DNA of 64,000 bases, from IMG/VR virus record IMGVR_UViG_3300046713_000250, positions 1-64,000 of that record. One strand, 5' to 3'. A program made the position numbers and the translations under genes. Under the pieces are notes generated by a model. The model was given only the letters and a program-made list of their open reading frames with translations. It did no database searches and was not told the origin of the DNA. Of the stretch, positions 34,349 through 38,957 are shown one piece after another (position 1 is the stretch's first letter; each line of letters opens with the position of its first letter). This DNA comes from a virus.

Positions 34349-34666
34349 ATGCCGGGCACCGAACGGGTGCGGCCCGCCGAGACGCGAGAGATGCGGCTCA
34401 TCAGCCGCCTGATCGAGATGAGCTCGGAGGTGTCGGACACCTCGCTGGCCCAGTTCATCGCGCGGCGCCGTCACCCCGAGGCCGGCCCGAATTCCTGGAA
34501 CGAGATCAGCCACGCGCTGACGCCGGTCATCTTCGGCGAGTTCGTCACCGAGGGCACCATCCGCAAGTGGGCCGCTGCGTACGGCATCCCGGACCGCGGC
34601 CCCCGGATCAAAATCACCACCCGCGAGTACGCCTCCGGTCTCAAGGCCGCTGGCATCTCGCTCTAG
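34349..34666 (+). CDS. Putative HTH regulator at the divergent switch
   Basis: A 105-residue protein from an ATG with AGGGAGGGCG upstream. Its helical sequence (ETREMRLISRLIEMSSEVSD, LAQFIARRRHPEAGPN) leads to an HTH-like segment NEISHALTPVIFGEFVTEGT IRKWAAAYGIPDRG. It lies first on the rightward arm next to divergent promoters, where many phages encode a switch repressor or activator. The regulator function is inferred. Confidence 0.6.
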   Translation: MPGTERVRPAETREMRLISRLIEMSSEVSDTSLAQFIARRRHPEAGPNSWNEISHALTPVIFGEFVTEGTIRKWAAAYGIPDRGPRIKITTREYASGLKAAGISL

Positions 34667-34738: not shown

Positions 34739-34808
34739 GCGCGCGTAACTCAACGGCAGAGTGCCCGGACTGTACCGGGAAGTACCGGTTCAATTCCGGT
34801 CGCGCGCA
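34739..34808 (+). tRNA. tRNA-like gene, anticodon unclear
   Basis: Folds as acceptor GCGCGCG/CGCGCGC, D-arm ACTC/GAGT with a 7-nt loop, anticodon stem CCCGG/CCGGG, 4-nt variable region, T-arm ACCGG-TTCAATT-CCGGT and discriminator A. All stems are perfect. The anticodon loop is only 6 nt (ACTGTA), so the anticodon cannot be assigned. Reading T33 gives GTA (Tyr); TGT is another possibility. A deletion of one nucleotide from a normal loop would explain it. Expression as a working tRNA is doubtful. Confidence 0.6.
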
Positions 34809-34935
34809 CGATCAAGTAGCAACCGCACCACGTCGCAATCTCGAAGGTGAGCGGGCGCGAACGATCGCCGAGGACGGAAGGCAGATGCCGTGACGGATCG
34901 GAGAGACGATCTGGCAGCTCGGGACAGACGAGCAC

Positions 34936-35014
34936 GAGGGGCGGAGCGGAACTGGCGAAAGCCGGCGCATCGCCAGCGAGGGAATGGCCGGTGAGCTAGC
35001 CATCTCCGCCCCTC
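34936..35014 (+). ncRNA. Structured RNA: three-way junction between two tRNAs
   Basis: P1 is GAGGGGCGGAG (34936-34946) with CTCCGCCCCTC (35004-35014), 11 perfect pairs. Inside are P2 CTGGCGA/TCGCCAG (34952-34958 with 34970-34976) and P3 ATGGC/GCCAT (34984-34988 with 34999-35003). P3 ends exactly where P1 resumes. Upstream, GATCG-GAGAGA-CGATC and GCTCG-GGACAGA-CGAGC are further hairpins. It is a compact three-way junction with no ORF and is not a recognised RNA family. It could be a tRNA-precursor processing element or a functional ncRNA. Strand assumed from the tRNAs. Confidence 0.45.
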
Positions 35015-35019
35015 ACCTG

Positions 35020-35150
35020 TCCCGTGTGGCGCAGTGGACAGCGCACCGCCTACCTGATGAGGCAGATTGCGTAAGCCCTCAGACGATGGCCCGGCCTGAT
35101 CGACCGGGAAGCTGAGGCGGAGGTCGCCGGTTCGAATCCGGCCACGGGCA
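35020..35150 (+). tRNA. tRNA-like gene with 58-nt insertion in anticodon loop
   Basis: Acceptor CCCGTG/CACGGG with a T-C mismatch at the outer pair, D-arm GCGC/GCGC with loop AGTGGACA, anticodon stem CCGCC (35046-35050) and GGCGG (35116-35120). Variable region AGGTC, T-arm GCCGG-TTCGAAT-CCGGC, discriminator A. Everything is canonical except 65 nt between the two anticodon-stem strands, where 7 are expected. The insert has a stem CCTCAG/CTGAGG enclosing CCCGG-CCTGATCGA-CCGGG. It could be an intron, a processed insert or a broken tRNA. The anticodon is unknown. Confidence 0.6.
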
Positions 35151-35151
35151 C

Positions 35152-35202
35152 GAGGGGCGGGGGTCAAACCTTGTTCCGGCGGATCTACGCCGGCCGCCCC
35201 TC
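35152..35202 (+). ncRNA. Second GAGGGGCGG stem module after tRNA
   Basis: GAGGGGCGG (35152-35160) pairs with CCGCCCCTC (35194-35202) around an inner hairpin CCGGCG-GATCTA-CGCCGG (35176-35193) that abuts the outer stem. The flank GCACGAGGGGCGG and CCGCCCCTCACC recur at 34932-34944 and 35006-35017. The module therefore exists in two copies, each after a tRNA-like or tRNA-related 3' end. The role is unknown. Confidence 0.45.
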
Positions 35203-35517: not shown

Positions 35518-35532
35518 CGTGGGAGTACAGTA
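35511..35532 (+). promoter_or_regulatory. Degenerate promoter/operator copy
   Basis: GCGTGGGAGTACAGTAAG retains the right half of the phage operator and the -10 TACAGT (35526-35531), but the left half-site and -35 (TGGTCA) are poor. It lies over the end of the previous gene and 25 nt upstream of the 63-residue gene. It may be a weaker member of the regulon. Confidence 0.5.
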
Positions 35533-35556
35533 AGAGCAAATCCGAGGGGAGAGCAC

Positions 35557-38764: not shown

Positions 38765-38842
38765 ACCTGACAGGCCTGTGGCATCGTCCCCTGTCCGATG
38801 CCTTGGTTAGCGCCCCATCCCGAGGCGTGGCCGATTCGGGTA

Positions 38843-38881
38843 GCGGACCCCCGCTGAGTTGCGACCTCAGCGGGGGTCCGC
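38843..38881 (+). terminator. Strong terminator hairpin
   Basis: GCGGACCCCCGCTGAG and CTCAGCGGGGGTCCGC form 16 perfect pairs around a 7-nt loop. A weaker hairpin (GGCATCG/CGATGCC, 38780-38802, followed by TTGGTT) precedes it. The stretch 38765-38957 thus holds two terminators and the promoter at 38902; nothing else is seen there. Confidence 0.72.
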
Positions 38882-38901
38882 GCCATCTGGCCATCCCAGG
38901 G

Positions 38902-38931
38902 TTGCGCTCCCTTTCTACTGGGAGTACAGTA
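38902..38931 (+). promoter_or_regulatory. Promoter with operator TACTG-N6-CAGTA
   Basis: -35 TTGCGC (38902-38907), a 17-bp spacer and -10 TACAGT (38925-38930). The full operator TACTGGGAGTACAGTA spans 38916-38931 and the leader AAGGTTATCGAGAG follows. It is nearly identical in layout to 47498-47527. Transcript begins just before the ATG at 38958. Confidence 0.85.
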
Positions 38932-38957
38932 AGGTTATCGAGAGCAAGGGGGACGAG

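What the first reader, a model, noticed from the sequence alone, without database searches (positions are those of the whole stretch)
35020..35150. tRNA with a 58-nt structured insertion in the anticodon loop
Acceptor, D-arm, anticodon stem, variable region and T-arm are canonical, but 65 nt separate the anticodon-stem strands. The insert has nested stems CCTCAG/CTGAGG and CCCGG/CCGGG. Bacterial tRNA introns are group I and larger than 200 nt, so a 58-nt insert would be an unusual intron, a permuted RNA or a decayed gene. Its perfect flanking stems argue against simple decay.
Basis: seen in the sequence. Interest (0 to 1): 0.7.

Follow-up and report, generated by a model that had tools for sequence, protein, structure and literature searches.

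The report
tRNA-shaped phage RNA, rebuilt anticodon arm
A bacterial virus carries a gene that looks like a transfer RNA, but where it should read the genetic code there is a conserved branched RNA structure instead, so it is probably a tRNA-shaped regulatory, decoy or processing RNA rather than a working tRNA with an intron.

Summary
Window 35020-35150 is a covariance-model tRNA (44.8 bits, gathering 29) with 65 nt between the anticodon-stem strands. It is not a random insertion. A phage with almost no protein similarity (L015/L014) carries the same inserted tRNA, with compensatory changes in the acceptor and D stems. Its insert is conserved outside one variable hairpin, while the DNA around it is mostly unrelated.

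It is unlikely to be an intron. Every contiguous excision leaving a 6-9 nt loop puts A or G at position 33, in both phages, never the near-universal U33. The shared 1:72 mismatch is U:C. No RtcB and no group I intron were found.

I read it as a tRNA-like noncoding RNA: tRNA ends and core, with the anticodon arm replaced by a three-way junction. Arms seem exchangeable: the neighbouring tRNA-like gene carries a hairpin like the insert's second hairpin, while its homologue in the nearest relative has a different arm. phiC31-like Streptomyces phages carry a mostly unannotated tRNA-like gene with a covarying enlarged anticodon arm. The same locus holds an RNA motif absent from Rfam 15, usually found near tRNAs in phages and plasmids. 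Function is inferred; only two independent members of this exact RNA are known.

The parts
35020..35150 (+). tRNA-like RNA (here 'tRNA2'): canonical acceptor, D and T arms, replaced anticodon arm
   Evidence: RF00005 44.8 bits; homologue L015 9845-9970
35020..35020 (+). U1, mismatched with C72 (35149); the mismatch is kept in the relative
35046..35051 (+). 5' strand CCGCCU of the anticodon stem, root of the junction
35115..35120 (+). 3' strand AGGCGG of the anticodon stem (AGGUGG in the relative)
35052..35114 (+). insert forming the inferred three-way junction
35054..35082 (+). insert hairpin 1: CUG/CAG plus GGC/GCC with an AUGA bulge; tip replaced in the relative
35090..35108 (+). insert hairpin 2: CCCGG - CCUGAUCGA - CCGGG; UGAUC conserved in the loop
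34739..34808 (+). tRNA1: tRNA-like gene with a 6-nt anticodon loop; its arm resembles insert hairpin 2
   Evidence: 54.9 bits, ARAGORN, similarity tests
34863..34911 (+). conserved RNA motif GCCGAGGACGG..GCCGUGAC + hairpin GAUCG-GAGAGA-CGAUC
34796..34932 (+). block 86% identical to L011 929-1064, in a phage sharing few proteins with this one
34936..35014 (+). hairpin GAGGGGCGGAG/CTCCGCCCCTC in front of tRNA2
35152..35202 (+). second copy of that hairpin (GAGGGGCGG/CCGCCCCTC) behind tRNA2

Best explanation
tRNA2 is a structured noncoding RNA built on a tRNA scaffold, not a tRNA gene awaiting splicing. Shown by sequence: tRNA acceptor, D and T arms; an anticodon stem that opens into two hairpins; the same architecture in a second phage with almost no protein similarity; no excision that gives U33. 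Inferred: host RNase P, RNase Z and CCA-adding enzyme trim it like a tRNA; it stays unspliced; the tRNA body gives stability and docking to tRNA-binding proteins; the branched arm is the effector part. Most likely use: a phage RNA that engages a host tRNA-handling or tRNA-cutting enzyme (decoy or inhibitor), or that punctuates and matures the noncoding transcript in which it sits. I cannot choose between these two from sequence.
For: Same inserted tRNA in L015/L014; the covariance model built on both scores them 165 and 146 bits (by construction). Compensatory pairs C2-G71 to U-A and G12-C23 to U-A; sliding the partners drops pairing from 96.8% to under 48%. Conserved insert: 8/8 and 27/35 identical outside hairpin 1, which itself is replaced by another hairpin. 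The two phages share one weak protein match over 13 kb. No excision leaving 6-9 nt yields U33. U1:C72 mismatch kept. The tRNA1 arm resembles insert hairpin 2 of both phages (p 0.0003 and 0.001), whereas L003 carries another arm on the same scaffold, so arms appear swapped on a kept scaffold. Parallel case: phiC31-like phages keep a tRNA-like gene with an enlarged, covarying anticodon arm (15 both-side changes versus 5.4 shuffled, 0/500 reach it).
Against: Only two independent members; inside the insert no pair changes on both sides, apart from the wholesale change of hairpin 1. Folding energy is not better than shuffles. No promoter was recognised in front of the locus. No expression or processing data. 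Some neighbouring tRNA-like sequences in L011 and L015 look scrambled, as decay would give. The similarity tests were chosen after seeing the match, so their p values are optimistic.
Confidence: 0.62

Rival explanations
1. It is tRNA recombination debris: a decaying tRNA array in which tRNA pieces were joined, kept alike in two phages by recent exchange rather than by selection.
For: Insert resembles the 5' part of tRNA1 and contains a 13-nt near-copy of the neighbouring motif (D3); L011 and L015 hold other scrambled tRNA-like pieces.
Against: Compensatory changes in two tRNA stems and one GC to GU in the anticodon stem; differences concentrated in one hairpin that stays a hairpin; conserved single-stranded segments.
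Confidence: 0.22
2. It is a real intron, removed by an unknown enzyme or by itself, giving tRNA-Arg(CCU).
For: ARAGORN places a 58-nt (53-nt in L015) intron at the canonical 37/38 site; the position is conserved.
Against: The product would have A33, not U33, in both phages; a U1:C72 mismatch; no RtcB found in the phage; no group I intron in Rfam; no small bacterial tRNA introns of this kind are known to me.
Confidence: 0.07
3. It is a Ro60-associated Y RNA (YrlA type) or another permuted tRNA mimic.
For: tRNA-mimicking noncoding RNAs of this kind are described in bacteria and phages (Chen et al. 2014, cited in PMC9569102; own knowledge for the phage part); permuted halves do occur in Mycobacterium phage Rey.
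Against: Halves are in normal order with the acceptor at the ends; no TROVE/Ro60 gene in these phages; no Rfam Y RNA match.
Confidence: 0.03
4. It is an attachment site (attP) that resembles a host tRNA 3' half.
For: The 3' half is highly conserved (34/36) and shares 26 or more exact bases with other phages.
Against: No tyrosine integrase in any of the phages; the 5' half covaries too; serine integrases were not searched.
Confidence: 0.03

Closest known systems
Phage tRNAs with mutated anticodon loops that resist anticodon nucleases (van den Berg et al. 2023, PMC10264068)
   Same: Phage-encoded, tRNA body kept, anticodon loop changed
   Different: Those are mutations in decodable tRNAs; here the whole loop is replaced by a branched structure and U33 is absent
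YrlA / bacterial Y RNAs (Chen et al. 2014, cited in PMC9569102; details from own knowledge)
   Same: Noncoding RNA with a tRNA-like domain joined to another module
   Different: Circularly permuted order and linkage to Ro60; neither is seen here
tRNA-like gene of phiC31-like Streptomyces phages (NC_001978 31424-31510; annotated as tRNA-Gly in Lilbooboo)
   Same: tRNA ends and core, anticodon arm enlarged and covarying
   Different: Shorter single arm with an internal loop, no evident sequence relation to the insert; no function found in the papers searched
GOLLD RNA near tRNA arrays (RF02032; found in phage Rey; co-localisation with tRNA clusters in mycobacteria, PMC9569102)
   Same: Structured phage noncoding RNA among tRNA genes
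   Different: No GOLLD match in this window
Archaeal and eukaryotic tRNA introns (PMC4090602)
   Same: Position 37/38
   Different: Spliced by a protein endonuclease and leave a decodable loop; here no decodable loop can result

Membership tests
Functional elongator tRNA | Cloverleaf acceptor, D and T arms | tested here: met
Functional elongator tRNA | 7-nt anticodon loop with U33, directly or after one excision | tested here: not met
Functional elongator tRNA | Paired 1:72 | tested here: not met
   U1:C72 in both phages
Group I intron in a tRNA | Catalytic core recognised by Rfam models | tested here: not met
   the insert is also only 58-65 nt
Protein-spliced tRNA intron (BHB type) | Bulge-helix-bulge at the splice sites | tested here: inconclusive
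   one internal bulge in hairpin 1, not at the exon borders, by inspection
Protein-spliced tRNA intron (BHB type) | RtcB-type ligase in the phage | tested here: not met
   (a host enzyme is possible)
YrlA Y RNA | Circularly permuted tRNA-like domain | tested here: not met
   normal order of halves
YrlA Y RNA | Encoded with Ro60 (TROVE) | tested here: not met
tRNA-like noncoding RNA (broad class) | tRNA scaffold conserved while decoding is lost | tested here: met
   two members only
tRNA-like noncoding RNA (broad class) | Transcribed and processed by tRNA enzymes | not testable with these tools
   needs RNA from infected cells

The most novel reading that the evidence does not exclude
Actinobacterial phages carry a class of tRNA-scaffold RNAs whose anticodon arms are interchangeable effector modules, moved between scaffolds and phages together with a motif absent from Rfam that lies near tRNAs, and used against host tRNA-directed defence or to mature a noncoding transcript.
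Probability: 0.3. Interest if true: 0.78.

Novelty: new variant of a known kind. Interest (0 to 1): 0.55.

Why it matters
Annotation tools call such genes tRNAs, tRNAs with introns, or miss them: the phiC31-like examples are mostly unannotated. If they are noncoding RNAs, counts of phage tRNAs and codon-compensation arguments include non-decoding molecules, and a possible counter-defence RNA sits unnoticed in model phages. The phiC31-like case makes the question testable in a laboratory Streptomyces strain.

Tried and rejected
Hammerhead core: CUGAUGA is present in the window, but the GAAA segment is missing, the relative reads CUGAUGG, and Rfam gives no match. Exact-match scans for the 3' and 5' halves in viral contigs and for the 5' half in genomes found nothing relevant; the two genome hits are not tRNAs and lie in what look like coding sequences. 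Two gapped patterns in viral contigs returned only L014/L015 as true relatives; the other hits are ordinary tRNAs or unrelated sequence. Model search of 396 Actinomycetota genomes was empty, a weak test because few candidates per genome were scored. The third ARAGORN hit, 38828-38921, is a hairpin of terminator type, not a tRNA.

Full report
What is there. The window is 64 kb of a 65.6-kb virus record at about 69% G+C, with a tape-measure gene related to those of Gordonia, Streptomyces and Mycobacterium phages. Between the coding sequence ending at 34666 and the next one (from about 35277) lies a stretch of about 600 bases with no recognised gene and two tRNA-like sequences. tRNA1 (34739-34808) scores 54.9 bits; tRNA2 (35020-35150) scores 44.8 bits with 65 nt between its anticodon-stem strands.

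Relatives. The nearest relative (L003, a 66.5-kb contig) keeps tRNA1 with a different anticodon arm and lacks tRNA2. A 22-base pattern from between the two tRNAs led to other viral contigs. One of them, L015 (and L014, the same phage), carries tRNA2 with its insert. Over 13 kb the L015 locus shares a single weak protein match with the window, so the RNA moved independently or outlasted the rest. A gapped pattern over the whole viral collection found no further true relatives.

Comparison. In the two-sequence alignment the 5' half is 28/32 identical, the 3' half 34/36, the first insert segment 8/8, the segment from hairpin 1 to the 3' half 27/35, and hairpin 1 only 5/20. Hairpin 1 is a short bulged hairpin in the window and a long perfect one in L015. 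Two tRNA stem pairs change on both sides and one anticodon-stem pair changes from GC to GU; sliding the partners by one base drops pairing from 96.8% to under 48%. U1:C72 is unpaired in both. Two sequences cannot give a statistical covariation test: 111 of 500 shuffles reach the observed values.

Why not an intron. Every contiguous excision that leaves a loop of 6 to 9 bases was enumerated for both phages: position 33 is A or G in all. U33 is close to universal in decoding tRNAs (established knowledge). Rfam finds no group I intron and the phage has no RtcB. The genes were read as DNA only, so splicing is unlikely on this evidence but was not tested.

Arms as modules. The arm of tRNA1 in the window, GCCCGGACTGTACCGGGAAG, resembles insert hairpin 2 of the window (p 0.0003, for tRNA1 against the whole insert) and of L015 (p 0.001, for the arm alone), while L003 has another arm on the same tRNA1 body. 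Other tRNA-like genes of these phages also depart from a normal decoding loop: an A33 loop on a seven-pair stem in L006, an eight-base loop in L015 at 9434. L003's version of tRNA1 does have U33, on a mismatched stem.

A parallel in known phages. BLAST with the L015 sequence led to phiC31 and its relatives. They share a tRNA-like gene, annotated as tRNA-Gly in Lilbooboo and without annotation in the others examined. Its anticodon arm is enlarged with an inner hairpin, except in phiBT1, where it is short. Over eight sequences the tRNA with its enlarged arm shows 15 both-side changes against 5.4 in shuffles, none of 500 reaching it, including changes in both arm helices. Replacement of the anticodon arm on a kept tRNA body is therefore seen more than once in actinophages.

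The locus. tRNA2 lies between two copies of a GAGGGGCGG/CCGCCCCTC hairpin. Between the tRNAs is a motif, GCCGAGGACGG..GCCGUGAC followed by a hairpin with loop GAGAGA. It recurs in L003, L010, L011, L012 and L015, in Leclercia and Acetobacter plasmids and in Caulobacter phages CcrPW and CcrColossus. In L010, the plasmids and the Caulobacter phages tRNA genes lie nearby. The stem of its hairpin differs while pairing holds (by inspection). It is absent from Rfam 15 at the thresholds used and from 396 Actinomycetota genomes.

Mechanism. Shown: scaffold, replaced arm, conservation in a second phage, no U33. Inferred: tRNA-type end processing, no splicing, an effector arm. Phage tRNAs with altered anticodon loops are proposed to escape host anticodon nucleases (PMC10264068); a tRNA body without a cleavable anticodon loop could act as a decoy, or could serve as a processing signal for the flanking noncoding RNA. 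I give the scaffold-RNA reading 0.62 and decay 0.22.

Limits. The similarity tests were made after the match was seen.

Noticed in passing
window 34863-34911; also L003, L010, L011, L012, L015, L050, L051, L052, L053: RNA motif GCCGAGGACGG..GCCGUGAC plus a GAGAGA-loop hairpin, with tRNA genes nearby in most phages and plasmids that carry it; absent from Rfam 15.
   Followed up: partly
L022 952-1038 (phiC31), L023, L043-L046, L048, L049: tRNA-like gene of phiC31-like phages with an enlarged, covarying anticodon arm, mostly unannotated; phiBT1 (L047) has a short arm.
   Followed up: yes
L021 about 1496-1570 (Mycobacterium phage Rey); L042 (Xanthomonas phage Olaya): A tRNA 3' half is followed within a few bases by a 5' half with complementary acceptor sequence, as in a circularly permuted tRNA or Y RNA.
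   Followed up: partly
window 34739-34808: tRNA1 has a 6-nt anticodon loop (ACTGTA); ARAGORN cannot assign an amino acid.
   Followed up: yes
window about 35521-35534 and 38916-38934; L003 10920-10938 and 11652-11670: Repeated TACTGGGAGTACAGTAAGG-like sequence in front of genes, possibly an operator or promoter element.
   Followed up: no
window 38828-38921: ARAGORN tRNA-Arg call that is really a GC-rich hairpin after a gene, probably a terminator.
   Followed up: yes
L006 1500-1573 (- strand): Second tRNA-like gene of the L003 phage: seven-pair anticodon stem and A33.
   Followed up: partly
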